From Anaspis maculata (lineage: Eukaryota > Arthropoda > Insecta > Coleoptera > Scraptiidae), in NCBI GenBank assembly GCA_949128115.1, contig OX421963.1:92823602-92887601 (forward strand): a stretch of 64,000 bases of DNA, read 5' to 3'. Under the pieces are notes generated by a model that was not told the origin of the DNA, did no database searches, and worked only from the letters and a program-made list of their open reading frames with translations. A program made the translations under genes and the position numbers. The stretch's first letter is position 1. Each line of letters starts with the position of its first letter. Positions 1 through 22,500 of the stretch are shown one piece after another.

Positions 1-2800
1 TCAATTTTATCAAAACTTGCTGAGTTTTTGCTGCAAGATGCTTCATTTTTGTCGAAAATCGCTGGATTTTTCTGAAAATTACTGAGACTTGCACACATTC
101 ACCGATTTTTGATTGGAAATTGTTGAATTGTTGCTGGAAAAGGCTCAATTTGCCGAAATTTGCTCAAGTTTTGCTGAAATTTGCTGAAGTTTTTCTAAAA
201 CTTGCTACATTTGCGTTAGAAATCGCTCAATATTTGCTCAAATTGCTAAATTGATGAAGTTGGCTAAACTGTGATCAACATAGCTACTTTGTTGCCAATA
301 GCTGGATTGTGCTGAAACTTTGCCAATGTTTGGTTTGAAATTGCTGAATTTTGCTGAAAATTGTTGAATCTTGCGGAAACTTGTCGAAAATTGCTAAATA
401 AATCTGAAAATCTGTTGGAATATGCTGAGGCTTGCTGGATTCTGATTGCAAATGATATATTGTGGTTTGAATTACGTTTTCTTGAAAAATTGCTGAATTG
501 TTGATGAAGCTTTTTGAATGTTGATTCAAGATTGCTAAATGGTTGCACAAAATAACTGATGTTTTGCAACTTGCTCAACTTTGCTGGAACACGCGCTTAA
601 TTGATGTTAGAAATTGCTACTTTGATGCAATTTTGCTGAAATAGTGCTAAAATATTGCAACATTTTTGTTAGAAATTGCTAAATATTTAGGTACTTGAAA
701 TTGCTAAATTAATGAGAAAGCTTGCTAAATTATGATCAACATTGCTACTTTATTGCCAATAGCTGAATTGTGGTGATACCGGCCAAGTTTTAGTTTGCAA
801 TTGCAGAGTTTTGCTGGAAATTGTTGAAATTCGCTGTAGCTTGTGAATTTTGGTTTGGTATTACGTTTCTCTAGAAAATTGCTGAATTGTTATTGAAGCT
901 TCCTAAATGTTTATTATACGTTAGTATGTTGTATATGTTCATGTTTTGCTGAAACTTGCTGAATATTTGCTGAAACATACTGAATTTATATAGAAAATTG
1001 TGAAATTAGCTTTCCTACATCTGTGATAAAAGTTGTCAAATTTTTGTTTGTTGCTGCAGGTGCATTGTTCAAGCGTACTGGAAATTGTTAATTGTCAACT
1101 TGAATTTGCAAAACCGAAAATTGCCACATTTGTGCTGAAAAATTGCTGAGATTTGCTCAGCTTCACTGAACTTTGAAAGTGGTTGATTAAGTATCAGTAT
1201 AAAATTAATTATTTATTATCTGCTGAAAATTGCTTAATTTTGCGGAAACTCGCGGAAATATCGCTGAAAATTGCTACAGTTTTGTGAGAAGTCGCTTAAT
1301 ATTCACTTTAACTTGCTGAATTGGTGATGAAGCTTGATAAATTTTGATTAACATCGCCACTTTGTTGCCAAAAGCTGGATTGTGCTGAAACTTGGACAAG
1401 TTCTGGTTTGAAATTGCTGAATTTTGCTGAACATTGTTAAATCTTGCAAAAACTTGCCAATCACCCATCGAAAATAGCAAAATTTAGCTAAAAATTGTTG
1501 GAATCCGCTTAGGCAAGATGAATTTTGCTTTTAAATCAGAATGATATATTTTAGTTGTGAATTAAGTTTCGCTCAAAAAATTGCTGGATTATTTTTAATG
1601 TAATTTTTTGAGTTTTCATTCAAAATTGCTGAGAACTGATATAAATCTTGCAAGAAGTCCAGTTGAAACATCTGAGTTTTTGTTCAGAATTCCTAGACTT
1701 TGTTGAAAGTTTGCTGGATTATTGCTACAACTTTCTAAATGTCGATCTGAAATTGCTAAATTGTTGCTGAAAATTGCTAATGTTTTGCTAATGAATCTTT
1801 GCTAGAACATGCTAAATGCATGCTGAAAACTGCTACATCGATGCTAAAACTTGCCGAACTTGCGACATTTTTGCTAAAATTCTCTACATGTGTGGTGAAA
1901 ATTGACAAATTTTTGTTTGTCGCTTCAGTATGAAAGCACGCCGTCAATCGGTTACGAAGTTCGTACTTGTTCGATTTTGGTTGGAAATGTCTAACTTGTC
2001 GCTGAAAATTGCTGAAACATCAAAATTATCGGCTGAAATTGTTTGCTAGAAAGTAAAAATTGCAAAATTTTGTTTGAACTTCTTGAATCGTGATAGAAAA
2101 TGGCTGAATTGTGACTGGAAATTGCTGAGTCCGGTCCCTATCGGCACTTTCCATTGTTCAACGTTCGAATAGTTTATTAAAGGACAATATCATGATAACA
2201 AGGGCAGCATTGCTTTATTCATCTCCAGTTCAATTACTACCTACTACGGTAGAAAAGGCAAACAAATAGTCATCTTGTCATATTTCAAGTGGGCGCTATT
2301 TTTGCTGTCGAGTGTACATCTTCCGTCTATTTTCTATTTCAAAGGCCAAAATCAAGTGAAACAGCCACAAAGTTTAGTCAAATTGAAATTGTTGTGTCGC
2401 CTGAAAGGAATCACAAATTTTCATGAGGTTTCCTTTTGACCATGCTGATTTCTTACGGCTCAATATCAAACTGGAGGCGCAAAGCTGGGACGGCGTAAGG
2501 TAGGTACCAAATACAGCGGTTTGTTTGCTTGATCATCACCTCGATCATCACGAATATTGGAATATTTCTAAGACCAACAAGACACGGCTGCAATAGGTAA
2601 ACAAAAAAAAAAGCTTGCCACTGCCGGCTAGCAAATAAATAGGTCTGGTACGAAACGAAAAGCCGGCAGTATACATTGTGTAATGTCAATTACTTTGTAC
2701 CGGCTACGATACGGATGGTCAGCAGTGCCGGTTACCATGCAAATAGCCGGCTCCGGTCACAATACATGAAGCCGGAGCCGGCTACGGAGGCACTTCCAAT
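1..2800 (-). repeat. Left copy of a long interspersed repeat (window-end family)
   Basis: From 1 to about 2140 the sequence is a very degenerate short-period repeat built from variants of 'aaattgctgaa' and 'aacttgctgaa'. From about 2140 to 2800 it is a non-repetitive 'head' containing several 'gccggctccgg'-type palindromes. The block from about 430 to 2800 is collinear with the reverse complement of 61650-64000, with paired positions summing to about 64,430. I place the inner boundary near 2800, where the two copies stop matching after a shared 'acttcc'. Long open frames here (for example 264-578 and 2453-2689 on the minus strand) are low-complexity or repeat-derived and I do not call them genes. 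The outer end is not visible, so the class of the element is unknown. Confidence 0.75.
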
Positions 2801-2963: not shown

Positions 2964-4155
2964 TCATTGTATAGTTTTTCCATTGTCGTCATCCTCAGTT
3001 ACATTTTGAATTTCGTTTCCCGTATCTACGGAATCATTTTGATCTCCAATTTCCGGAACATATAGTTTTCCTATAACAGTGTTATAAGTCTTCTTGCTAT
3101 TGTTATGTGAATTTATTAAATTATCAATGGGATTTAAAGTTGCTAAGTTTTGATCATTTTCAGTTGTATTTAAGTCAGAAAATCTAACATGTTCAGGAGG
3201 GTAATGAATTTTACAATAGTTTTTATTGTATAAACTTGATTTTCTAGGTCTGAGATATTTTCTGTTTCGCACATAATTTCCTTTTCTTTTTACTTTTATC
3301 TTATATCTACGATCACCTAGCCTGCTGATGATTATTCCTGGTTGCGAGTTTGAATTTGGTTTTAACTGTACCCAAACTTTTTGATTATTTGCCAATGGTT
3401 TTAATTGTCTGACTCCGTTTCTTTGATTATGATAATTCGTTGCATAATTTTCTTTCTCCTTCAGATATTTCATGTATTTCTTTGTATTAATCACGTGCGT
3501 CTGAAATTTATTCACGTTAAGAGGTAACAAAGGATCTCTGGTGCGCCTCGACATTAGTACTTCGTATGGAGTTGTGTTTTCAAAAATAGGAGTGTCTCTC
3601 CATTGTAACAGTGCCATATCTAAGTCTTTGTTATCTTCTAGGACTTTCTTGAAAATATTTTTCACGTTTTGTACCTGCCGCTCGGCCATGCCGTTGAACT
3701 GGCTATGATATGGTGAGGTTGAATCAAATTGAATGTTTGAAACCCCATTCGGGGCTGAAATTCTTGAATTTTATGGCGGTATACTGAGGACCACCGTCAC
3801 TCACCAGAATGTATGGGACGCCAAACCTTGCAAAAATGCTTTTCATTATTTTGATAATTTTATTACTTGTTGCGTTTCCGGTAAGTTTCTCCACTTCTAC
3901 GAATTTAGAATAGTAGTCTAATAGGATTAGGTGTTGTTCCCCAAACAGTTCGAGAATGTCGGTACCTACTTTGAACCAAGGGATCGCAGGTACGTCATGG
4001 GTACGCAACGGTTCATTTCTTTGAGATGGGTTGTATTTTTGGCAAATCGGACACAATTCTATCAATTGTCTCAATTCGTTTCGGATGGTGGGCCAGAATA
4101 CACTGCCCTCGCTCATTTCCACACTTTTGTTATAACCGAAGTGGCTGTAATGTAT
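2964..4155 (-). pseudogene. Element 1 integrase remnant
   Basis: Just below the inserted repeat the frame resumes with the zinc-binding histidine region (H..HFG, about 4150-4120) and the CPICQK cysteine motif (about 4055). It is followed by the catalytic core with GTDILE (first Asp), SDGGPQYT (second Asp, about 3810) and, after a frameshift near 3725, the third acidic residue region (MAERQVQ, 3689). The frame then runs to 2964 through a basic C-terminal region and an acidic, Asn-rich tail. The order matches a gypsy-class integrase. One frameshift separates core and C-terminal halves. Confidence 0.82.
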
Positions 4156-4462
4156 TTTACGTGTTTGTTGTGTTGATACATGAGATGTAATGACTTTTAT
4201 ATAAGTTGTATATGGATATTACAGTTTATGTACTTAAGTTGACACTTGTCAAAATAACCTCAAAAATTACAAAAATCTCACAATTTTTTATAGAACAAAC
4301 ACGTAAAATGTTGTGCAACACTCGTGACTTGTTACACAAGATGCTTTCCGACACTCAGCCTCTCACAGAACTCGGGCTGCGCCCTCGTTCTGCAAATTTC
4401 GGCTTCGTGCCTGAAAACCACTTATGTAACAGCCAACTCGTATTGTAAACTACTATTACCCA
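4156..4462 (+). repeat. 307-bp interspersed repeat inserted in element 1 integrase
   Basis: The block from 'tttacgtgtttg' to 'ctattaccca' recurs at 53805-54111 at about 96% identity by eye and with identical length. The sequence starts with 'tttacgtgtttgtt' and contains an inverted 'aacaaacacgtaaa' about 140 bp later, so its first half could form a stem. It splits element 1's pol frame between the linker and the integrase zinc domain, so it arrived after that element. No clear target-site duplication is visible. Both copies contain an open frame of about 78 codons, but nearly all differences between copies change the amino acid, which argues against a selected protein. Confidence 0.8.
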
Positions 4463-5116
4463 GGATTTCTTTTCTCAATGACCTTGGAATGACGCATGCT
4501 TGCCCTTTATAAATAATACCGTTATTTATTGTTAGTTCGCTCTTGTACTTCGTATAAATTCTAATTTTTCCGTTTACTTTATTGTTATTTGGCCAGCCCC
4601 TGGTAACAATTTGAGAAATAATCTTCAATTCTTCATCTTTTTCAGTTTCAATTTTTATTTTTTCGAGATAATGCATCTGTAATATTTGAACCTGAATTAA
4701 TTACGCATATTTGTTAGTTTTCATCCATTGATGTATTTTCTTCGTCATTTGAGTCCGTTTCAGGCAAATAGGCTCGCGACAATGCGTCTGCAATCATCAG
4801 TTCGCTGCCTCTTCTGTAATTTAAAGTGAATTGGTATTTTTGTAATTGTAGCAGCAAACGTTGTAGTCTGGGCGGACATTTATCGATTGGTTTTTTAATA
4901 ATGACCAAAAGTGGTTTATGGTCACTTTCCACTATGACTTGTCTTCCAAAAACATAATCGTGAAATTTTTGCAACCCGTATAAAAATGCAAACTTTTTTT
5001 TCTATCTGGGAATATAATTTCTGTGTTTCTGTGAATGATTTTGATGAATAGCAAACTGGTTTGTTTTCTTGTAGTAGGCATGCACCTACGCCGTTTTGAC
5101 TTGGATCTACTGACAC
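4463..5116 (-). pseudogene. Element 1 RNase H and connector remnant
   Basis: Minus-strand frames 5116-4922 and 4974-4714 hold RNase H blocks: a DPSQNGVGA-type first-strand motif, the SSKSFTETQ block, the ESDHKPL motif and the connector signature ADALSR. The two frames overlap by a shift near 4975. Frame 4676-4463 is the linker leading to the integrase zinc-binding domain; it ends at 4462, where an unrelated 307-bp repeat interrupts it. Confidence 0.8.
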
Positions 5117-5171
5117 CGTGATATTTTTCTTGGATTAAAATACTGTAAAACAGGACTTTGAGTTAATTTTT

Positions 5172-6600
5172 TCAAGAGCTTGTATTTGAGGTTTTTCCCA
5201 ACTGAAGTGTGTATCTTTTTCCAAAAGATCTCTCAGTGCCTGTGTTTCTATTGAATAGTGTAGAATGGAATGAAAAATTTACATAATTTACAACACCGAT
5301 CAAACGCTGAACGTCTTCTTTACACTTTGATGTGGGCATTTCTTTTATAGCTTCAACTCGATTTGTATCAATTTCTATTCCTTTCTCATTTATAATGTGT
5401 CCCATAAATTCAATTTCAATAACCGCAATTTGGCATTTTGCTAGATTGAATTTGACTCCATGCTTTCTGGCTAAATTCAATACTTTTTCAAAAATTTCGT
5501 CATGTCCTTTTTGATCTTTTGCCCAAATAATAATGTCATCTATATACACTCCTACAGTATTGCAATTAAAAATGCTTTTGAACCTTTCATTGAATATTTC
5601 TGGCAAACAAGTGATACCATAGGGTAACCTTTTGTACTTGTACCTTCCAAAAGGTGCACCGAATATGAAACGCTTGATTTGCATCCAATTTACTAAAAAT
5701 TTTAGCTCCGGACATACGACTTGTTATTTCTTCAAAAGTTGATAATCTGATTTGTTCTCTCTTAATTGATTTGTTCAAATGAAACGGATCAAGGCAGATT
5801 CTCAATGAATTTTCGAGCTTTTTGACAAGTACCAATGGATTTATTCAATCACTCGGTCTTTCAGCTTTTTCTATTACTTCACTTTTTTCTAAATTATTTA
5901 GCGCCTTTTCGAGAAGGTCAAGTAAAGCAAGTGGTACTTTTATTATTGGGGTTATCACCGGTTGTGCGTTTGGAATTAAATTAATGTGATAGGGTGGATT
6001 TATTCCTCCTATTCCCGGGAACAAATCTCCATATTTTTCCATGACAGTATCTTTTGTATATCGAATATTATGCACCTGAACTTCATTTTCATTGATACAC
6101 GACGTATCTGTATTTTGGATGAGTTTCAGCTTTATGCACGTTGGTAAACCTAAAAGAGGTTCTAAATTGCTTTCAACTACATAAAATTCAATTAGATTTT
6201 TTTCATTTTCAATTGAAAAAATCATTCACATGTTCCAACTACAGTGATTTGATTTCCTGTGTATGAAGTCAGTTTTAATTTAGGAGTTTGCAATGCATTC
6301 AATGGCAATTCCAAAACGTTTTTGTGCATATTTATAGGCATAAGATTCACTGAAGCTCCACTATCTATTTTGAATTTGATTTGTTTGTTTTCAATTGCTA
6401 ACTTTGTTATCCAGGAACAACCACCCGCATTAACATTTTTAATTTGAGTATGCTCAATTGTCTGACTATTTATACTACCTACATAGAATTCTGTTGTATC
6501 ATTTGAATCATTATGGCCTAAAACTGATTTGATTTTTTCTTGACGACCTACACATTGAGGCGAAATGATTTGCTTTTTTACACTTAAGTTTTTCTCTGAC
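5172..6600 (-). pseudogene. Element 1 protease and reverse transcriptase remnant
   Basis: The minus-strand frame ending near 6230 holds the retropepsin active-site motif IDSGAS followed by VNLMP. After a frameshift, 6225-5845 continues through the protease C-terminus into the RT N-terminus. The frame then meets a TGA at the position of the tryptophan in the usual 'W-x-N/S-P' start of the RT palm, continues at 5835-5587, and shifts again to 5684-5172, which contains RT motif YIDDII and the following 'FMGH' motif. The RT thumb end is degraded near 5250. At least four lesions separate the pieces, so no functional enzyme can be made. Confidence 0.85.
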
Positions 6601-6619
6601 TGTCTACTTTATTTCATAG

Positions 6620-7129
6620 GTGAGAGATCCAGAGACCGGAACAGCTCTGGGACCGAACCAGAAAGGAGAGCACTGCATTAAATCCGACTTCCTCATGCTG
6701 GGCTACCTCAAGACGGACGCGTCGTCCAACTACACCGAAGACGGCTTCCTGCGGACCGGCGACATCGGCTACTACGACGAAGACGCCTGCCTGTACGTCA
6801 TTGACAGGATAAAGGAAATGTTCAAGTACAAAGGCTGGCACATCGTGCCGTCTTCCGTGGAATCCGTGCTGCTGCAGCACGCCGGGATCAAAGAAGCGGT
6901 CGTGTTCGGAACGCCGCACGAAATCGACGGCGACCTGCCGACGGCCTGCGTGGTCCTCCACCAAAACTCCAATGCAAGCGGAGAGGAAATTTTGAAGTTC
7001 GTCAACGACAGAGTGCTGGACAGAGAGAAGCTCAGAGGGGGCATCAGGATCGTCGACAGCCTGCCCAAGACTCCGTCTGGGAAGCTGTCGAGGAACAAAA
7101 TACGCGAATCTGTTATCAAATCTTTGTAG
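6620..7129 (+). CDS. Gene A, last exon: ANL-superfamily acyl-CoA synthetase (4CL/luciferase-like), C-terminal part
   Basis: The exon starts after the acceptor 'tttatttcatag' and ends at TAG 7127-7129, giving 169 codons in phase 0. It encodes the end of the large domain and the whole small C-terminal domain of an acyl-adenylate/thioester-forming enzyme. The hinge-side motif RTGDIG (about residue 47 of the exon), the hinge motif [13 protein letters not shown] and the C-terminal motif KTPSGKLSRNKIRE with the adenylation lysine are all visible. Family members activate a carboxylic acid with ATP and usually pass it to CoA; the substrate cannot be told from this part. The C-terminus (VIKSL) is not a canonical SKL-type peroxisomal signal. 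The preceding exons must lie upstream of the window. Intron position and phase match the last exon of gene B. Confidence 0.93.
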   Translation: MRDPETGTALGPNQKGEHCIKSDFLMLGYLKTDASSNYTEDGFLRTGDIGYYDEDACLYVIDRIKEMFKYKGWHIVPSSVESVLLQHAGIKEAVVFGTPHEIDGDLPTACVVLHQNSNASGEEILKFVNDRVLDREKLRGGIRIVDSLPKTPSGKLSRNKIRESVIKSL

Positions 7130-7514: not shown

Positions 7515-10500
7515 GTACAAATTATATCAATTGGGACCGAACAAACGTTTTTAAAAAATATTTTATTCACTAAAGAACGTACATTTGAGCTTCTATGCGG
7601 ATCTAGTAATAATTTTCAAACGTAAAGCATCGTTGGCTTAAATAAAACGATCAAGCATCGCTTGAGCCTGGAACCATTTCAACTTCATTTTTCAACTCGG
7701 AGATGTTTTCCAAGTTGACTAGGTTGATATGCGTCTTCTTTTGTGATGGGTGTTGAAATTCTTGAATTTCCATGTCCTCGAAGGCATCAACGAACAGGGG
7801 TCGACCTAGTTCTTCTTCCGACCTTTCTACCATGCCGTTGGATTGTGGATTTTCAGGAGTGATGAAATTAATTTTTATTTCATGTAATTCAAGTAGTTCT
7901 TTCAAATTTGTGTTTTTGAATTCTGTGCCGTTATCACAAATGATCATCTTTGGAATTCCAAGGTGTGAGAAGAATTTCAGAAGGCTCTGAATTATGTCGA
8001 TTGAGTTGTGACTTTGTATCTTATAGATTTAAGCGTATTTCGAAAATGCATCTATGATCGTGAGAAATATCCACTTATCAATCGTTATCGTATCGATATG
8101 TATCGTCTCGAAAGGTTTAGTTGCTGTGGGTGTTGGGTTGATTCCCAGTTTCAAGGGGTTGCGTTCGTATTTTGTACGTTGACAGATATCGCAGGTATTT
8201 ATGTATGTCTAAATTGAATTTTTCATGTTAGGCCAATAATAAAGACTTTTAATTTTTGCCTCTATCTCATTTATACCACGATGGCTGGTCTTGCTCTCGT
8301 GATATCTTCGTAGTACTTCAGGTATTTGGTTTTCCTTTACATCTATCAATTTTCGTTTTGAACAAATGAATTTATAGTGGGGTCACTTGAATGTTTTCCT
8401 CACTGTCTCGCAAAATGAAAAGTATGCTTCTGGGGGATCAAAGATCATGTAATAAGTTATTTCGGGTACGATGTATTCCCTTATAAAGTCAATGATCTCG
8501 GTGCCGAAATTATTTTTATCGATTTGGGCAAGTAATCTCTGTCTGTTTGAGAACGGCTTTATAATTTTGGTTCGAGCTGGAGAGTGATTGACCAGTTCGA
8601 TTTCGATTTGATTTTGACCTTTATAAATAAGTCGTCAGATATCGAAATTTCAACAAATGGGTTTTCTTGGTCATTAGAATGTTGAGTCATCATCATTTTC
8701 AGGCTCTGGTAATGGGTGATCAGGTTCTGATAATGGGTCATCAGGTTCAGGTACCTGCTGGATGTCGTTTTCGTGATCGCGATCTATAACAACTGGTTCG
8801 GGGGTTTGATCATCGGCTTCGTCTATAGCTATTGTTGGTACGATTTCGGGCTCAGTTTCGTTAAGAATGTAAATGCGTACATTGACGGGAGTGTTCCGAA
8901 AGGGAGTTTCGATCATTTGAGATATTCTTTCCCATTTTAGGCCATCAAGCCAAAAAAAAAATTTGGCATAGCAAGATCTTTAACATTATGTCGTAAACAG
9001 AGATCTTTCAAACAGATGAGCGGTTCTTGCAGATTTTTGTAGGTAGGCTTGTCATGGTAACTAGACTTCGTGATCATATAATAAACGTATCTAGAAAGAA
9101 GTTTCAAGCAGGCGACCTCTCCAACTTCTTTACGTTGTTTTGTTAGAGTCGATATATGATTAAATCTTGTTCGAAACTGAACTGCAATCCCTTTGTTCAT
9201 TATGAAGTCTTGAGAAACACAGTGAGCAAGGCAGAAATGTTCGGGGGCATCAAAAAGGTTTCTATTCAAAATTTTGATTTGATTTGAATTTTCTTTTTGT
9301 GACGTCGGAGGCATATCGATCTCTGATTGTTCATCTTTGTTGGCGACTAGAGAAGCTTTTTATAATTTGTCATTGAATTCTCTGATATAATAATTAATAT
9401 TCTGAGGTATATTGGTTTTATTGATATTGATTTCTATGCGATATAGAGCGTCTGCATTGGCATTTAATTTTCCTTTTTTAAATATGATTTCATAATCATA
9501 TTCATCGAGCTTGAGGCGTCACCTGACCAGTTTGGAGTTAAGCTCTTTGAGGGAAAATAACCATATCAAGGGTTTGTGATCAGTGATAACATTAAACTTG
9601 CGCCCAAAGACATAGGGCCTGAATCACTTCACGGCGTACACGATTGCCAGAAGTTCCTTTTCGATCGTGGAGTAGTTTTGTTCCGTATCATTGAGAGTTC
9701 GTGATGCAAAGGCCAAGGGCAGATCATTACCAATGGACCCTTGAGACAAAACGGCTCCAATGGCTACGTTGCTCGCATCAGTGGTCAGGTTAAACGTTTT
9801 GGAGAAGTCAGGATACTGAAGGATGGGCTCATTCATCAATACCTTTTCACATGGGTCGAAACAAGACAAAAATTCATCATTATGGGTAATTGTGGCATCT
9901 TTTTTCAAACATTGAGTCAATGGCTTGGTGAGTTTCGAGAAGTCTTTGATGAACTTTCTATAGTAGCCCAAGAGCCCTAGGAATCCTTTCAGCTGCTGTG
10001 GCGTTTTTGGAATGGGAAAATTTTGGATAGCCCTAGCCTTTTCCGGATTGAGCTTAATGCCATTGAGTGAACAACATGGTCCAAATAATTTACTTCCTTT
10101 CTTAAGACTACGGACTTGTCCAGATTCGCTTGCTCCAATCGTTGGAAAACTTGTTTTAGGTTGACCAAATGGTCCTGAAGTGACACACTGAAAATGATTA
10201 TATCGTCTAAATAGACCAGACAAAGCTCATTCTGCAACCCGCGTAATATATTCTCTACAACGCGCTGGAAGGTTGCCGGAGCGTTCTTTAACCCAAAGGG
10301 CATGCGTAGGTACTCGTAATGCCCGTAAATGCGGTCTTTTGAATGTCTTCCGGGGCCATTTCAATTTGGTGGAAACCGGAAGCCAGGTCTAACAGGATAA
10401 AGTACTGCCAACGTCCCAGTTCATCAAGAATGTCTGGAATGTTTGGCAATGGATACCTATCGTCGATGGTTTTTTCATTCAGCTTCCTGTAATCGACAAC

Positions 10501-13500
10501 AATACGCCATTCTTGTCTACCACTGGCGTCAGGTTTCTTTGCCACCATTCAGATCGGTGAACTCCATGGCGAACTGCTGGGTATTATGATTTTTTGGTCT
10601 ATCATCTTTTGAATCTGTGTTTTCACTTCGTTTTTATGGACGAAAGGGTATCTGGATGTTTTTGAATATACCGGCATTTCGTCTGATGTTTTGATTTGAT
10701 GTTTGATCGGATTTGTGAAAGTTAAAGGGGTATCTTCATCGTAAAAAATATGAGAAAATTGTTTCACAAGGTTTTCAATGGCGATTTTTTTCCTCAGCAT
10801 TCATGTGTTTAGTTCGAATTTTGGGTTGATTGCATTGTTTGTGTTCAAAATTATGGAAATTAGAACATTCCATTGAGTTTTTCTGAAAATCTTCAGGAGC
10901 AATCAGCTCGGAGTCGAGAGGTTCTGAATAAAGTGGCTCAGAAAAGTCAAGATTGATGGGTTGTTCAGTTTTATTCATAATCGTTACGAAAGCTTTATAG
11001 TTTTTTGCAGTAGTCGAGCACTCTAGGATCTCACAGCCATGTGATGATACATAGGGAATGATGATGTCACCATTGGCGATGGTGGTTCTCACATTGACAA
11101 TTTGTTCGCAACGAGGGATTATTGAACAGGTATTAATTTGTTTTGGGGGAATATTTTGAAAATAAATTTTCGGGTTTCCAAACGGAGTCACCAGTGTTCG
11201 ACTATTGAAATCCAGAGTAGCATTCAAAAACTGCAAGTTGTCCAAGCCAATTGAAGTCCTTTGAAAATATCATGGAATTTGAATAATCGAAATTTCATAA
11301 ATTCACCTGGGCGATTAAATATGTAGGGAACTTCCATCCATCCGCTATATTTATGCGCCGAGGTTGAAAACATGTTTGATAATAATAATATTTATTCAGA
11401 ATGCCATTACAACGTTGAATAATGGATATACAATATAACTACAATATGAATCGAATTGAATGGTGTCTGGGAAAATCTGCTCTGCAATATCCGGATCAAC
11501 AAATGATTGGCTAGCTTCTGTGTCTATCAAAAACTTCAAGTCTTTGAAATTTGGGAAGATAACATACGGTAATTGATTTGTATGCTCTTCGCTATGATTA
11601 ATGGTTACTTGTTCAATTTCGTCCCTGAGGCCGACAATAAAAAATTTCCGTCCGATACATATTGATGATTTGGTCCGTTAGTTGGTCCGTTAATTTCTGG
11701 GATATCTTGAGTTTCGTTATGATGGAACTGAGAGTTGTAATTATTATCAGGTCTGTAATTTTGGGTAAAATTCGGTGATCTCTGTTGGTTTTGCCTGGTA
11801 CTTATACTTATGGGTACCGTAGAGTGGGGCTACTTTGAAACGAGGGGTAACTTTGAACAAAAAATAACTTTGCTATAATCATTAATAGCGGAAATAATAT
11901 CAGGTTTAGATACATGCAGTTTTTTTTATAAGGTTTATTATACTTTCAGGAATTATATGGCAGCACAGGTTGAAGATCACTATTTTAGGTTCGTAATAAT
12001 GACGTTTTGTTGACAGCTGTCAAAAAAGTGAGGTTGATGAGGTGCGCAAACTTTACCGTTTGGAAAAGTTAGTATTTGCATTACAGGCTCCAAAATTCGT
12101 TTATGTTACCTTTGAAATGTTGCGACAAAGATGTAATGACCTGAAGCGTTCCATCAAAACTTTACAGTGAATAACTATGGACTCAATGTATTGTTCAGAG
12201 ATATTGATCTCTTCATTTTATATTCTTACATTTACCTAATCACATTTTTGCTGTAGAATTTTTGGAAAATTATGTGTTATTTTCAACTATGTCATTCATG
12301 GGTTTAATTCAAGGTTTTATTCTTACGATATAGTCTTTTTTCATTGTACCTGCATGTAAAACTGATAAAATACCTGAACATAAATTATAGTCTCTTTAAA
12401 ATATAGAGAATTTTTTTTTTATATCAAACAATTTTTTTTTAGTTTTGTAGCGTTCAAAGAAACCCTATCAAAAAGGTTTCATTGAAATTGTATGTTTCGA
12501 TTACCTTTGTTCAAAGTAACCTCAACCTAGGGGTTACTTTGAACACCCACATTTTAATTTAAAAAAAGGCCTTGTTGGTCATATTGCAATTGGAATTTTT
12601 GATCAACATGTAGCTCAAAGCGATGCCCGTGATTTACTTTTTTTTCAAAATTTTCACACAAACACTTTCGAAGATATCAGCATTTAAACTGGAAATCTGT
12701 TCAAAGTAACCTCGTTCTACGGTACCGGCGGCGTGGATTATCTGTAATTCGGGTTCGGTTTGAAAACATTCCGGTCCCTGTTTTGGTAATTATTTTGGAA
12801 ATTATTCGGTCTGAAATTTTGCGGTTAAGAGTTTCTGAAAGGTTGTGCATTTGTGGAGGATTTAGGTCTCTGTATTTGTCGCGGCTGTACATTGATTGGC
12901 TGAGACGGAAAGTTTTGCTTTAATGTGTTTGAGTTTGAACTTTGTGGGGTCTGACCACCTGAATTTGAAGGTTTCTGGTAATATTTCACATTGTTTTCTT
13001 CATTAATGTATTGAAGGGCGGTTTGCAAATCTGGAGGCCTCATGGCCCGAATTCCGCTTCCAAGGGGTTCTCTCAGACCGGCGAGGAACTCCTTCAGCGC
13101 TAACTTATTATACAATTCCTTTTTAATTACTTGACCTTCCGCAGTTGGTTCATGCATCGTAACATATGAGCAAAGCAAGTTCAACAATCCCACCACTTTA
13201 TCATAAAAATGCAGGCTGGTTTCGCTGGACTGTTTACTGAGAACCAAATCTCTTATTAAGCATATTTCGTCCCGTTGGTCGCTGAAATTCCGCGATAGAG
13301 CATCGCGAAGGTCGTCCCATGTTTCTACGGGTGATATATTTATGGCGATCTTTGCATTTCCCGTCAACTTATTCATCAACGATTTCAAAATGAAAATTTT
13401 TTGAAAACATTGCGGGTTGTTTTGGTCAATGAAGGTATCTATTATGGTTGCCGCTGTAGTCAAGAAATTATTCAATTCGTTGGGGTTGCCGTCATAAAGG

Positions 13501-16500
13501 GGTACGCAGTTTAGGTATTCGGGTTTAAACTGCATAGCACCCCCAACCACTTGCTGCGGAGGCTGTTGCACGACTCCTTGAGGAGGATTTTGCGCTGGAT
13601 TCATTATTACTGAAGTATTATAGTTGGTAAGTTAGTATTATCAGTTAGAATCAATTGATTATTGATTAAACTTGTATTTATATTGAAAATTTAGGGATCA
13701 AGGGGGGTCGATATTTAGTTGTTGGATTCCTTCGATTAATCTTTCGATTTCAGACATGAACTGTATATCAGAAAAATCGCTCACTCTAAAAATCCGGAGA
13801 ACTGGAGTTGCATCGGGGTGTGGTCGGTAGCTCTGGGATGTCTCAAAAGGGCCGGTGGTTATTCGATGTTTGGAATGCCATTAAAGTCCTTTTTCAACTT
13901 CGATTCGCGATGAATCCAGAGAACACAGGTTTTACTGGATTAATTGTTGAAACAAACAATTTTCGCGATGAAAAATGTCCAGTAATCCTAACGACTGCGC
14001 CAATTATATCAATTGGGACCGAACAAACGTTTTTAAAAAATATTTTATCAACTAAAGAACGTATTAGGCTTCTATTCGGATCTAATAATAATGAATGCTA
14101 CTACAATGCGTTTCTATTATAATAATTCTGGAAGTGCTGATTCCGCAGTGCTGACATTGCATTAGTGTGGCAGTAGCATCGATGTCACTTACACAAAAAT
14201 TTAGTTTTCTTCAATCTATTTCAAAATTCTTGTAATTCAAAGTTTGCGAATGACTATAAACCTAGTCTCAAAACTGAATTTTAGATCGAAGCGATCAGCA
14301 ACAAGACTGAAACGTTTGACAGCATGCGAAAACGAACCACGAGGACAGCAATGCACCTCCAAAGCTTCGGCATCACTTCAAAAGACGTAATATTGTTTTG
14401 CACTGAGAATACAATAGACAGCGTGATTCCGTACATAGCTGCGACGTACTTGGGCGCAAAAGTCGGTTCTTTGGACCCTAATTTGTCGACAAGGGACACA
14501 AAACACTTAGTGGAAATTGTAGCACCTAAAATGATCTTCGTTCAAGAAGCTTCAGTACAATTAATCGAAGCCAGCAGTATCCAAACTCCTACTCAAATAG
14601 TAGTTTTTGGAAGATCGCTCACGTATCCGACTTTTGAAGAGTTCAGTAAGGCTTCAGCTACAGAAGAAGCTTCAACAGAAGAAGGCTGCTTCCGGCCAGT
14701 TGAGGGTATCTGCACCGATGACACGGCAGTGGTTTTTTTCAGCAGTGGCACCACTGGGTTACCGAAAGCGATATGCCTCAGTCACTCTGCTGTTCTTCAA
14801 ATGGGCTACGGAATGGCGTTTGTATTTCTATCTGCTGTATTTTTGCACATTGTAAATGATTCATTTCCAGCGAGTTTGAGTTCAATACCAGAGTCTTACT
14901 CCATTTCACCACCTTGTACTGGATGTCGGCAGTTACGATGCTCATTACAAATTTCGAAACCGGAGGCTGCAGGGTGCTAGCCAGCAAGTTCGATGCAGAA
15001 ATTATATTTCGTCTCATTGAAACACACAAGGTTTGTACACTTCAACAACTCGTCTGGTGCTTCTGGTATGACTGTCGATCAAAACGAAAGCTCCGAGTAT
15101 TATAAAGAGCTGTACTCGGAGCTGTACTGGCCTGCGTTATTAGCCCGCATAACTCTTTTGTCGGCCTTGTTTGAAAGTGTGTTGTCGCCAATTTTGAGTC
15201 CCCAATTTGAACTTTGCAGGTAACAAACGTTTTCTCCGCTCCAACCCTCACCTACCTCTTGACCAGCTTCGAAGACGCAGAGCGATACGACACGTCTACC
15301 GTTGACGTATGGGCCATGGGTGGCAGTACTTTATCCCCCAATCAACTGCAGCGAACGAGAGACTTACTGAAACACACCAACGTTCTGTTGGCTTACGGGA
15401 TGACCGAGGCCGGTTTCGTTTCCATGTTCGATCCGAGAACTGACCGGGAACTGATGGAGAAAAAGATGAAATCTTCGGGAAAAATCATGGCCGAATGTAA
15501 TGTGAAGGTAGGTGAATATAGAGTGATCGATGAAAAAAAGTCTCTTCAAAATTCAAAATATCTTCGTTAAAGGAAGAAATTATTACTGAGAAATCCCGGC
15601 TTTCAATTCCAGACAGAAATCTGCTTCACTATGACTGCAATTAACGGTGGTTTCTGTTGCCGTCAAGTAATTTTTCATGCTGCTACGAGCAACGACTCCC
15701 GTACAATCTGGTAAACACGCGAAGTTTCTAGACTCTTTCACAGCCGCAGTGTACGAATTCGCGGAGCTCTGGATAGATCTAGAGCATCTAGAGCAGATCT
15801 GTGATGGCATTGAAATACATGGAGACTCCAACGGCTTTCTGCAACCTTTGCAGCACCTTCTCAAATTCCACCATCTGCTCCCAATATGTCTCTGAAACAA
15901 TGACCATGTCATCCAGGTAAATTAAAATTCCTCGCCATTGAAGGGTTAAGCGTATATAGTTGCGTTACACCTCCCCTTTTGGGAGAATATAAGCCATTTA
16001 TTGGTAAACAATACAAATCGAGTATAAATCAATAGAACATTGTGAAAAGGTAACTAACTGTAAAAATAACAGAAAAACTTTGTAAAAAATGAAATAGGAA
16101 AAAGTTCTGTTTATAGTTGAACAACTTCACTAAGCACTTCACCAAATGAAACCTCACTCCCGTGCAGCCGGCAAATGTCAAGAAAATAAGAAATGTGAGA
16201 CCATCAAAAGGCCCTGCTGAAATAAGGTTGACGAACTTGGATAAATGTAACCGTCCGCCCGAGCGCCCGCCCATTCTGGAAATTGGTCAAAAAATAATAA
16301 TCAACTTAAAATATAGTAAATTTCATCGAAAGACTTTTGAGGGGGTAAAGTTGCCAGCACAGATATAGCATTACCCCTCTGAATTTCAAGACTGATTCTT
16401 TGTTTTAAAAATTCTGTTGATCGAGTTTCTTTCGATTTTTCAAAAAATTTTCGACCAACCTCCGCAATGAAAGACTTGGCTGAAGGACCCCAAGAGCCAA

Positions 16501-19500: not shown

Positions 19501-22500
19501 TCGGAAGAGTATGATGCAAAGAACATTTTCACCGAGTGGCATCTTCTCATCAAAAAATGCAAGGTTCATTCCATTTTATGCAACTAGCATCCGGACTATA
19601 AAATTTCATCCTCGTTCTGAAGCTTCAACATTTTTATTTCATTCTCGCCGGCCATATTATCCAACTTGGTTAGCAGAGGCTCTAAAGCACTGTTAACGCT
19701 AGCGGGTTCCTATTTGTTACTCGAGGGATTATCCTGTACTCTTACATCACCGGGCTTTACCCTGGATAACAAAGCCTTAGCTTTGTTATCACTAGTAACT
19801 TTTCCATCAAAACTCGCAACACACTGTAAATTGTATTCCTGTATTATCATACTTATTCGATTTTCGAAAACTTTGAACTTGAGATGTGGTAAATTGAAGG
19901 TATCTTTATTGTTTGTCACCTCAAAAACTCCAACTTCATTTTCGCATATTCTGATTTCCTTTTCCGATCGGTCAGTTTCTGTGAGAATTTTTTCTTTCCT
20001 GGTTTGGGCTCGCGTCATCATTTTTGCTACATTGATATTTGAAACTTCAAGTTCTTCAATATTTACCCTTGACAAAGCATCAGGTCCTACATTGTCTTTC
20101 CTCTTTATGTAATTGATTTCAAAATCGTATTCCTCTAATTCGAGGCGCATACGTGTTAGCTTGGAAGTAGGACTCTTCATTGAGAATAAATAAACGAGTA
20201 GGCGGTGATCAGATCTCACAATAAATCTCTTTCCATAGACTTATGGTTTGAAATAATCAACAGCCCAGTGAATTGCTGTTGATTCTTTTTCAATGGTACT
20301 TTTGTTAGCTTCTCCCTTTGTAAATTTTTCAGATGCAAATGCGATTGGTGAATCGTTTTCGTTGTGTTCCTGTGACAAAACTGCGCCACATGCAATATTT
20401 GAGGCGTCAGTTGAAAGTATTGAAGTTTTTGAAAAATCTGGATACTGCAATATTGGCGGCATCATCAATGCCTTTTTCAAACTCGAAAATGCACTGTTAC
20501 AATCCGTAGTCCATTCGAATGGGACTCCTTTTTTTGTAAGCTGATTTAGTGGAGAAGTTATTTCAGCAAAGTTTCTTATAAAACGCCGATAATAATCAGC
20601 GAATGCTACGAAACGCTTGGCTTTATCAGCGTTTTTTAGAATAGGAAAAATTTTAATTGCATCGAACTTTGCTGAGTCAAGTAGGACTCCTTTGTCTGAA
20701 ATGGTATGGCCCAAATATGTGACCTGATCTTTGAAGAATTGACATTTATTAGGATTTAACTTTGAAGTGCTACTCCGGCATACTTCAAAAACTTTTCTGA
20801 CATCTTGTAAATGACGTCCTTCTGAACACCCTGTAATTATAACATCATCAACGTACAAAAACGCCACATCGAGTGGTAGACCCGAAAATGCCATTGTCAT
20901 CATACGTTGAAAACTGTTACATGACACATTCAAACCGAAGGGCAATCTTTTGAATCTGTATGAAGCACTTTCGATAGAAAAAGATGTGATATTTTGTGAG
21001 TTCTCTTCTAACGGAATTTGATGAGATCCGGCCATTAGGTCAATAACCGAGAACCATTTGGCCCTACCTAATTCATCTAGGATCGCATCAATTCTTGGTA
21101 ATGGGAATTTATCTTGTACCAGTTTTTTATTAATTTGTCTGAAATCAACGACCAAACGTCATTTTTTCTCATCAGGGTCTTCCGCTTTTTTGGAGACGAG
21201 TATTAATGAAGAACTGAAAGGTGACCTGCTCGCTTCTATCAAGTCTTTTTGTTTCAATAATTCTACCTGCCTTTTCACTTCTTGTTTTTGCGATTGTGGC
21301 AGTCTGTACGGTTTTATGTAGACGAGTGTTTCTCTGTTAACGTAAGTTCCTGTTCGTAAAAGTTGTTATTTGTTAATATATCTTCCTCTGAAGCAAAAAT
21401 ATCTGGAAATTCTTCGCAAAGGGCAAATAATTCATCTTGAACATAAAACAGATGTGTCGGCACCGCTGTTCAGCATTAAAGTGATTACGTTCCTTTCTGT
21501 CATATCCGTGTATAAATTAATAAAACTTCCCATAACCAGGTTGAAACAAAAAAAATTTACTGTTGGTTGTCTTTGTCTTCCAGAGTCTGACCTATCCTCT
21601 GGGGACCTCTCTCGTTTCCCGATTGTGAACACCTGACATTGTGGGTGTTTCCTCGCGTTGTCCTATTCTTACTTTGACCTCTGTAATCGTCACGATTATT
21701 ATTCGAGTAATTGGACCAATTTGCATTTCTCGACGAATTACCTTGAACATTTCCCCGAAAACGAGTGTTTGAGTTATTATTTCGGTAATAATTGCCGCTG
21801 CTACGATAATGTCTGGATCCGCGATTTCCTCGTTGTCGTGCATAATTGTTATTCCGGTAATAATTAACTTGCAAGGGCTCCGTTCTTGTGTTAGCATCTA
21901 TAAAATCCGTCATACGTTCTTGAATCGTTTAGAGGTTCTGAGGCTTTGACAAGCAATTTTGCTGAATGCATCGCATTTTTCAACATTGCTTGTTTCGTTT
22001 CCGTTATAGTATATTTTTCGGCCACATTTTCTGGTTCTCCATCGGTCAAATATGCATTTTTGAGTTTCTTTGCAAGTGGTTCTATTTATTTCGCATGAAC
22101 CTTGGCCGTTTTGTGTCTCTGATCAAGGCTTACCAGCTTGGCTCTTACCAAGTCTATACTTTCTGTTTTAATTACAGCTTTGAGCTTGTCTACTACTCTT
22201 TCTATTGAATTTTCATTCGTGATATTGGCTCTGGCCCTACCTGTCAACCTTGTCTTGACAAACGATAGTGCCAGTGCCTCATGGCCAGTTTGATACGCCT
22301 CAATCAGATCCACCGCGTCGATAGATGTTTGCGGTTCATCTGGTTCCCCATCGTAAGGACTCTTGAAACTATTGGTACATAAGTTCAAAAATTGCGCTGC
22401 GTCTAACACCATATTGACAGTTTGATTTTCTTTTATAGCTTCGAATCTCGAGTTTGTTACGACCGAAAATGGGCCTACAGTAAGGATACCGCTATTTTGC

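What the first reader, a model, noticed from the sequence alone, without database searches (positions are those of the whole stretch)
8863..9278. A macro domain (OARD1/TARG1-like) captured inside a gypsy retrotransposon pol
Seen: between the RNase H connector (ADALYR) and the integrase zinc domain, in the same polarity and frame as upstream pol, the minus strand encodes a domain with CLAHCVSQDF, GIAVQF, GEVACLK, YVYYMITK, KPTYKNL, LAMP and, one frame over, DGLKW...VRIYIL. Known: these blocks, in this order, define the OARD1/TARG1 class of macro domains, which remove ADP-ribose from proteins or nucleic acids. Macro domains are not a normal part of 17.6/297-type pol. Inferred: the retroelement acquired a host ADP-ribosylhydrolase, possibly to reverse ADP-ribosylation of its proteins or DNA intermediates by host PARPs.
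Basis: partly seen in the sequence, partly recalled or inferred. Interest (0 to 1): 0.87.

Follow-up and report, generated by a model that had tools for sequence, protein, structure and literature searches.

The report
Macro-domain enzyme inside gypsy retrotransposons
Many retrotransposons in this insect genome carry, fused into their replication polyprotein, a relative of the human enzyme TARG1 that removes ADP-ribose tags, which suggests that these genome parasites undo a host ADP-ribose mark.

Summary
Window 8863-9278 (-) is a TARG1/OARD1-type macro domain (E 3.2e-27) between RNase H and integrase of a decayed Ty3/gypsy element. It is no oddity of one copy: four searches of the same genome list 270 macro rows of ten families (capped lists), many in open frames of 1300-1650 codons. 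Eight families are gypsy-type, with the domain after RNase H (A, B, D), before the protease (E, F) or before RT (G, H, I). J looks like a LINE ORF1 by eye; K, its relative, was not read. Fourteen database pol-type proteins or fragments carry it too, six of them after integrase.

Catalytic Lys84 and Asp125 of TARG1 are in register in 66 of 72 copies read; pN/pS between families is 0.35-0.41 with silent sites saturated. A model of one such domain fits TARG1 at 0.7 A.

Best reading: Pol brings its own mono-ADP-ribosylhydrolase, most likely against host marks on cDNA ends or Gag/Pol. Activity and substrate are inferred; the number of captures is open (AU p 0.29). The host is probably a beetle.

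The parts
8863..9278 (-). TARG1/OARD1-type macro domain (decayed copy; frame broken near 8940-8960; catalytic Lys in YYMITK at 9066-9083, catalytic-Asp motif WLDGLKW at 8932-8952)
   Evidence: phmmer vs 2lgr E 3.2e-27; C-terminal part; 75-88% identity to the other 64 family-A rows
9992..10548 (-). reverse transcriptase, in two overlapping frames
   Evidence: PF00078 E 9.8e-11 and 1.2e-17
9438..9866 (-). RNase H, ending at ADALYR
   Evidence: PF17919 E 3.7e-27, PF17917 E 1.3e-20 on 9627-10226; 3' end read by eye
9279..9437 (-). linker between RNase H and macro domain, one in-frame stop at 9360-9362
   Evidence: the same linker in family-A copies
8383..8862 (-). acidic Pro/Glu/Asp-rich linker and a region conserved with family B, before integrase
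   Evidence: A/B alignment; best PDB match E 0.053
8179..8304 (-). integrase H2C2 zinc domain (decayed, one stop)
   Evidence: read by eye; Pfam PF17921 in unbroken family-A copies
7846..8120 (-). integrase core, 3' part
   Evidence: PF00665 E 4.6e-07 on 7654-8028, just below cut-off; 5' limit by eye
12825..13631 (-). gag-like ORF of the same element
   Evidence: PF03732 E 0.019, below cut-off; position
11396..11677 (-). protease-like ORF
   Evidence: position and motif by eye only
7520..7613 (-). probable remnant of the 3' LTR
   Evidence: 90% identical over 94 columns to 14002-14092
14002..14092 (-). probable remnant of the 5' LTR

Best explanation
The domain is a TARG1-type macro domain that is a fixed part of the Pol polyprotein of several Ty3/gypsy families. 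Shown: its identity, its place in long open frames, retained catalytic Lys/Asp, protein-level constraint between families, and near-identical copies that carry it. Inferred: it is translated as part of Gag-Pol, enters the particle or pre-integration complex with RT and integrase, and acts as a mono-ADP-ribosylhydrolase. The most likely task is to strip ADP-ribose that host PARPs place on the ends of the linear cDNA (which integrase must process) or on Gag/Pol proteins, i.e. counter-defence. The cDNA-end version is my preferred one; a protein target is nearly as likely.
For: Order RT-RNase H-Macro-H2C2-rve in one open frame in the copies scanned of A (L004, L007), B (L033, L036) and D (L059; there the Macro score, 19.4 bits, is below Pfam's 22). 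270 rows of ten families. Lys84+Asp125 in register in 66 of 72 loci; T83, K84, D125 invariant in 45 aligned database relatives, mostly not pol-type. pN/pS 0.35 (A-B), 0.35 (E-F), 0.39 (G-H), 0.41 (A-D) with pS 0.78-0.85. E copies up to 100%, F up to 99.97%, A up to 99.8% identical over up to 3.4 kb. AlphaFold model of P0024 (macro followed by an H2C2-like stretch) on TARG1 with ADP-ribose, 4j5s: TMt 0.97, rmsd 0.7. TARG1-type domains also occur with DNA-ligase Pfam domains (P0043, P0047, P0049, P0114, accession names recalled) and with an XPG-type nuclease (P0079), which points to DNA ends. PARP1-3 ADP-ribosylate DNA-end phosphates in vitro, TARG1 is among the hydrolases that reverse it in vitro, and TARG1 K84A could not rescue bacteria from DarT (passages of PMC8501950). 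In Drosophila parp-1 mutants more mobile elements rise than fall, many of them gypsy-type, though most single changes were not significant (passages of PMC7712786).
Against: No activity, expression or packaging data. The pN/pS values have saturated silent sites and no RT or integrase control was computed. The strict published TARG1 search pattern is missed by A, D, F, G and H, mostly at one glycine (0 of 30 A loci). The Drosophila effect may be transcriptional or indirect, as its authors allow. No call here shows that insect PARPs modify retroelement cDNA or proteins. The 72 loci were taken from the best macro matches, which favours intact domains.
Confidence: 0.62

Rival explanations
1. The macro domain is a reader, not an eraser: it binds ADP-ribose and steers the integration complex to PARP-marked chromatin or broken DNA, as chromodomains steer chromoviruses.
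For: It stands before integrase in A, B, D and after integrase in P0007, P0055, P0084, P0102; P0007 also lists PF00385, a chromodomain by recall. Some macro domains bind without catalysis (passage of PMC6397177).
Against: Both catalytic residues are kept in every family read, more than binding needs; E, F, G, H, I place it upstream of RT or RNase H, far from integrase.
Confidence: 0.17
2. It counters a DNA-base ADP-ribosyltransferase (pierisin- or DarT-like) rather than PARPs, protecting single-stranded cDNA bases.
For: TARG1 and DarG remove thymidine-linked ADP-ribose from single-stranded DNA (abstract and passages of PMC8501950); after TARG1 the closest solved structures are DarG.
Against: No such transferase was sought in this genome, so there is no evidence for one.
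Confidence: 0.1
3. The domain is a passenger: a captured host cDNA tolerated at permissive linkers of pol, with no function for the element.
For: It sits in linkers at several positions, and the host genes have an intron that the element copies lack.
Against: Saturated silent sites with pN/pS 0.35-0.41; catalytic residues kept across families that are 34-58% identical; a listed macro match beside each A-like RNase H row whose frame exceeds 444 aa.
Confidence: 0.08
4. It is an isolated retrocopy or an assembly artefact at this locus.
For: The window copy is broken.
Against: Copies on contigs C1-C7 and C9 in the same arrangement and database proteins with the same order.
Confidence: 0.01

Closest known systems
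TARG1/OARD1 (C6orf130), human terminal ADP-ribose glycohydrolase
   Same: Homology over nearly the whole domain (E 1.5e-41 for a family-A copy, 6.7e-40 for a B copy), fold (model of P0024), catalytic Lys/Asp at the same spacing
   Different: Free-standing cellular enzyme; here a domain of a retroelement polyprotein; activity untested
DarG macro domain (bacterial antitoxin)
   Same: Next-closest solved structures; equivalent catalytic Lys per passages of PMC9967889
   Different: Prokaryotic toxin-antitoxin protein, 23-25% identity to the modelled domain
Retroviral dUTPases
   Same: An accessory enzyme taken into pro-pol: within pol in non-primate lentiviruses, N-terminal of Pro in betaretroviruses, C-terminal of integrase in MuERV-L; three acquisitions (abstract and passages of PMC1224870). 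The macro domain shows comparable places. That the lentiviral place is between RNase H and integrase is recalled.
   Different: Different enzyme; different elements (Ty3/gypsy)
Macro-domain ORFs in fish epsilon-like endogenous retroviruses (Basta et al. 2009, not seen; cited in a passage of PMC4977317)
   Same: A retroelement that encodes a macro domain
   Different: Vertebrate retroviruses; described as additional ORFs; macro class not given in the passage and relation not tested here
Viral macro domains (alphavirus nsP3, coronavirus)
   Same: Same fold; viral counter-ADP-ribosylation (recalled)
   Different: Other macro class, 10-18% identity in the fold search

Membership tests
TARG1-type macro domains | Homology over nearly the whole domain and macro fold | tested here: met
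   sequence; model of P0024, TMt 0.97 to 4j5s
TARG1-type macro domains | Catalytic Lys84 and Asp125 in register | tested here: met
   66 of 72 loci; residues identified from a passage of PMC6397177. The window copy keeps the Lys; its Asp lies past the frame break
TARG1-type macro domains | Strict search pattern TKx(30,35)Px[IL]GxGxD | tested here: inconclusive
   Met in B (21 of 23), E (4 of 4), I (3 of 3), J; missed in A (0 of 30), D (0 of 4), F (0 of 6), G, H, mostly at one Gly. A search aid, not shown to be a catalytic requirement
TARG1-type macro domains | ADP-ribosylhydrolase activity | not testable with these tools
   Needs an enzyme assay
Ty3/gypsy LTR retrotransposons (Metaviridae) | RT - RNase H - integrase order in one pol frame | tested here: met
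   on unbroken A, B, D copies; on the window pieces. For E-I only parts of pol were read
Ty3/gypsy LTR retrotransposons (Metaviridae) | Flanking LTRs | tested here: inconclusive
   Only a 94-column repeat pair in the window; LTRs of other copies not fetched
Ty3/gypsy LTR retrotransposons (Metaviridae) | gag | tested here: inconclusive
   PF03732 E 0.019 below cut-off
Macro-bearing fish epsilon-like ERVs | Common origin of the macro domain | not tested
   No such sequence was at hand
LINE ORF1 fusion (families J, K) | Non-LTR retrotransposon with RT-bearing ORF2 | not tested
   J: macro PF01661 met; CCHC-like knuckles by eye only, no Pfam match in the rest of the piece; ORF2 not read; K not read at all

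The most novel reading that the evidence does not exclude
TARG1-type ADP-ribosylhydrolases are a recurrent accessory enzyme of invertebrate retroelements, taken up by or moved to at least four places in gypsy pol (before protease, between protease and RT, between RNase H and integrase, after integrase) and to a LINE-like ORF1. That would mean that ADP-ribosylation of retroelement cDNA or proteins is a widespread host restriction which retroelements reverse, an arms race outside the known RNA-virus macro domains.
Probability: 0.5. Interest if true: 0.88.

Novelty: new variant of a known kind. Interest (0 to 1): 0.8.

Why it matters
If the domain is an active hydrolase, retroelements directly oppose ADP-ribosylation, and host PARPs (or other transferases) must modify something that retrotransposition needs. 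That makes a question testable in insects: is retroelement cDNA, Gag or integrase ADP-ribosylated in cells? It also gives a natural experiment on how pol polyproteins gain enzymes, since related families (A and I, RNase H 73% identical) carry the same kind of domain at different places of pol.

Tried and rejected
Isolated retrocopy or artefact: rejected by the genome-wide copies. Pfam Macro on the window ORF: no hit, because the copy is broken. Protein search with the window ORF: 2 candidates, none significant. My recall of the catalytic lysine (the K of AVLK) was wrong and made me note for a while that D, E, F and I had lost it (note); PMC6397177 places it in LITK and the count was redone. 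A single origin of the element domains is neither shown nor rejected (AU p 0.29 for gypsy+LINE, 0.28 for gypsy alone, 0.10 for the RNase H-integrase group). In one search the element/cell labels needed 4 changes; P0093, first labelled cellular, sits with P0118 (100/99) and is probably an element fragment; relabelled, 3 changes. For that tree I chose by hand 32 of the 121 database proteins held, plus 12 rows of my own. The genome search with Pfam PF01661 did not complete. Papers: ten searches, of which seven asked for macro domains or OARD1 in retroelements, one for the fish ERV work (40), two for TARG1 residues and dUTPase. I saw listings only, except passages of eight papers; the zebrafish ERV survey PMC8672886 and the review PMC9087173 gave nothing that I used. 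The library lacks most subscription journals.
Full report
What the window holds. On the minus strand between about 7.5 and 14.1 kb lies a decayed Ty3/gypsy element: probable LTR remnants 7520-7613 and 14002-14092 (90% over 94 columns), a gag-like ORF (PF03732 E 0.019, below cut-off), RT, RNase H and integrase pieces (the rve match, E 4.6e-07, is just below Pfam's cut-off). Between the end of RNase H (ADALYR, about 9438) and the integrase zinc domain, at 8863-9278, is a domain that matches human C6orf130/OARD1/TARG1 with E 3.2e-27 over residues 23-138 of its ORF. Its last block continues in the neighbouring frame. This copy is broken: a stop between RNase H and the macro domain, a frame break near 8940-8960, further stops in the integrase. 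Pfam's Macro model misses the broken ORF.

It is not one copy. A protein search of the genome that holds the window (G000, 757.8 Mb, 50 contigs) scored 150 of 451 candidates and all 150 are matches. 65 rows, the window copy included, have 75% identity or more (family A) and 85 rows have 47-55%; of the latter I read 23 loci and all 23 are family B (L031-L050, L072, L073, L082). Seven A rows lie in open frames of 1482 aa and 15 of the other rows in frames of 1437 aa. Pfam on separate pieces of unbroken frames gives RVT_1, RT_RNaseH, Macro (above the gathering score), Integrase_H2C2, rve in that order for A (L004, L007) and B (L033, L036). Of 67 A-like RNase H rows (83% identity or more), 58 have a listed macro match within 1.8 kb downstream; the 9 without lie in frames of 116-444 aa (the macro positions used were those).

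More families and more positions. Searches with human OARD1, a family-F domain, a family-J domain and a family-I domain brought further families. D (4 rows): RNase H-macro-integrase in a gypsy of another type (macro 19.4 bits, below Pfam's cut-off of 22). E (16 rows) and F (10 rows): macro before the aspartic protease, then RT (macro in E below, in F above the cut-off; the RT match in F is partial). G and H (1 row each): macro before RT (in G the RT match is partial and 0.4 bits below cut-off); in G the protease lies upstream, in H it was not seen; both have a second, degenerate macro-like stretch upstream, by eye. I (69 rows at 90% or more): in the copy scanned (L079) a protease match below cut-off lies upstream of the macro domain and H2C2 and rve downstream; in the three I copies read, RT and most of RNase H are missing or were not seen (only L079 was scanned). 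In six other I copies the macro row and an RNase H row share one open-frame length (1365-1653 aa) on one contig, with room for an RT between them (for example C2:96196046 and C2:96197852, both 1467); RT itself was not read there. Just after RNase H of that copy the 280 bases read contain no macro domain (L096). So a family whose RNase H is 73% identical to that of A carries the domain upstream of RNase H and, in the copy read, not after it. J (7 near-full rows) and K (12 rows at 53-57%) have longest frames of 661 and 805 aa. J starts with the macro domain (PF01661 23.4 bits; OARD1 E 5.1e-26) and continues into a protein with CCHC-like knuckles that looks like a LINE ORF1 by eye only (no Pfam match there); K was not read. 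A 65, B 85, I 69, E 16, F 10, D 4, G 1, H 1, J 7 and K 12 make 270 rows. Each search scored only 150 candidates, so families may be undercounted; a few rows are two pieces of one copy, and most B rows were assigned by identity alone.

Other sources. One family-A domain, padded with X to pol length, found P0001 (1406 aa, 63% identity) and P0002 (1194 aa, 45%) as the only matches among 104 candidates. An alignment of seven domains found 541 proteins at E <= 0.001, 120 listed. Among those listed and P0002, 14 are pol-type proteins or fragments. Located by BLAST, the macro domain lies between RNase H and integrase in P0001, P0002, P0027, P0082, P0106 and just before an integrase match in the fragment P0024; before RT in P0077 and P0118; after integrase in P0007, P0055, P0084, P0102, and in the fragments P0004 and P0095 together with an integrase C-terminal Pfam domain (precomputed; upstream in P0004 by eye; order in P0095 not read). 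So across all material there are four positions: before protease, between protease and RT, between RNase H and integrase, after integrase. The source does not name the organisms behind these 14; that none is this species is not shown.

Is it a working enzyme? PMC6397177 (passage) gives TARG1's catalytic Lys84 (in T-K) and Asp125 and a spacing pattern. Of 72 loci read from families A-I, 66 keep both in register (A 28 of 30, B 21 of 23, D 3 of 4, E 4 of 4, F 5 of 6, G 1, H 1, I 3 of 3). These loci were taken from the best macro matches, which favours intact domains. The six misses are the window copy (frame break), one copy with the Lys changed, one with the neighbouring Thr changed, two with the Pro changed, one with a stop. 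J, P0001, P0002, human and both host genes also keep them. The strict published pattern fails in A, D, F, G and H, mostly at a single glycine. In an alignment of 45 database proteins, mostly not pol-type, T83, K84 and D125 are among 11 invariant columns. Between families pN/pS is 0.35-0.41 while pS is 0.78-0.85, i.e. saturated, so the true dN/dS should be lower still; RT and integrase were not measured for comparison. A model of P0024, a natural fragment with macro followed by the start of an integrase (mean pLDDT 86.3), matches TARG1 with ADP-ribose (4j5s) at TMt 0.97, rmsd 0.7, 41% identity, and next DarG. Activity itself is not tested.

Age. Among loci compared, pairwise identity over long aligned stretches (over 1.5 kb) reaches 100% in E, 99.97% in F, 99.8% in A, 99.4% in B, 99.1% in D, 98.6% in I. 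Copies with the domain have therefore multiplied recently, at least in E, F and A; LTR dating of other copies was not done.

Origin. The host has two OARD1 genes, each matched in two pieces with a splice-donor-like end at the same place of the first (C5:69433495-69435235; C1:31305270-31309310); the element domains have no intron. In a 14-row tree the 10 gypsy domains form one side of a branch (92/93) and J goes with the host genes (95/88). In a 44-row tree with hand-chosen database proteins 14 gypsy domains group weakly (75/92); four after-integrase ones (100/96), P0077+P0118, P0007, P0106 and J fall among cellular proteins with low support. The AU test does not reject one origin for all (p 0.29) nor for the gypsy ones (p 0.28). 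RT of E/F is far from that of A, B, D, G, H. My inference is that uptake or relocation happened more than once; how often is open. One host OARD1 is nearest to a protein of Asbolus verrucosus, a tenebrionid beetle (74%); both group with it and the weevil Anthonomus at 98/89, so the genome is probably a beetle's (one gene family as evidence).

Mechanism. TARG1 removes ADP-ribose from Glu/Asp of proteins through a lysyl intermediate (passages of PMC9967889), from thymidine in single-stranded DNA, and, like other hydrolases, from DNA-end phosphates that PARP1-3 modify in vitro (abstract and passages of PMC8501950). TARG1-type domains occur together with DNA-ligase Pfam domains and, in three of four such proteins named here, PF00645 (PARP-type zinc finger, by recall), for example P0114 of Tigriopus, and with an XPG-type nuclease (P0079), which ties the family to DNA ends. 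A Pol-borne hydrolase would be delivered with RT and integrase at the time cDNA ends are made and must stay free for integration. In Drosophila parp-1 mutants five of eight mobile elements among the differentially expressed genes rose and three fell; ten more, nine of them gypsy-type, rose without passing the authors' significance limits, and they allow indirect causes (passages of PMC7712786). Hence the preferred reading: an eraser of host ADP-ribosylation on cDNA ends or Pol/Gag. A reader role, action against a DNA-base transferase, and a passenger are the rivals.

Compared with what is known. dUTPase was taken up three times by retroviruses, within pol, before protease and after integrase (abstract and passages of PMC1224870); the macro domain here shows comparable places. 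Fish epsilon-like ERVs were reported with macro-domain ORFs (Basta 2009, not seen, as cited in one passage of PMC4977317). Ten full-text searches of a partial library listed no paper that, by its title, abstract start or the passages I opened, reports a macro domain in Ty3/gypsy pol or LINE ORF1. So: a new variant of a known kind (retroelement with a captured accessory enzyme), with an unexpected enzyme and an unexpected breadth.

Noticed in passing
window 6620-7129 (+): Exon-like ORF that looks like an insect AMP-dependent ligase (4CL/luciferase type), by eye only.
   Followed up: no
window 3724-6608 (-): A second decayed gypsy-type pol (RT match, other pieces by eye); no macro match there.
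   Followed up: partly
window 20259-20960 (-): Third gypsy remnant, 48% to the window element over 152 aa of its RT-RNase H ORF; no macro domain seen after RNase H.
   Followed up: partly
window 252-1928: Several local direct-repeat families of 45-132 nt.
   Followed up: no
L091, L092 and L094, L095: Two cellular OARD1 genes with a splice-donor-like end at the same place; closest protein found is from a tenebrionid beetle, so the genome is probably a beetle's.
   Followed up: partly
L076, L077 upstream of the macro domain: A second, degenerate macro-like stretch lies before the intact one (by eye): a possible tandem duplication.
   Followed up: partly
L079 (also L078, L080): The family-I copy scanned keeps a protease-like match, macro and integrase in one open frame but lacks RT and most of RNase H: perhaps a non-autonomous subfamily.
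   Followed up: partly
G000:C7:62947330, C7:62953552, C9:13117 (L086): Three of the seven copies of the LINE-like macro family J lie within about 21 kb of contig ends; possibly a subtelomeric element.
   Followed up: no
G000:C8: I saw no listed row on contig C8 in these capped lists, although C1-C7 and C9 have many; C8's length was not seen.
   Followed up: no
P0043, P0047, P0049, P0114: Proteins with DNA-ligase Pfam domains (three of the four with PF00645, PARP-type zinc finger by recall) and a TARG1-type macro domain, one from the copepod Tigriopus.
   Followed up: partly
P0079, P0014, P0066: XPG-type nuclease plus macro, dsRNA-binding domain plus macro, and an OARD1-like protein of Scale drop disease virus.
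   Followed up: partly
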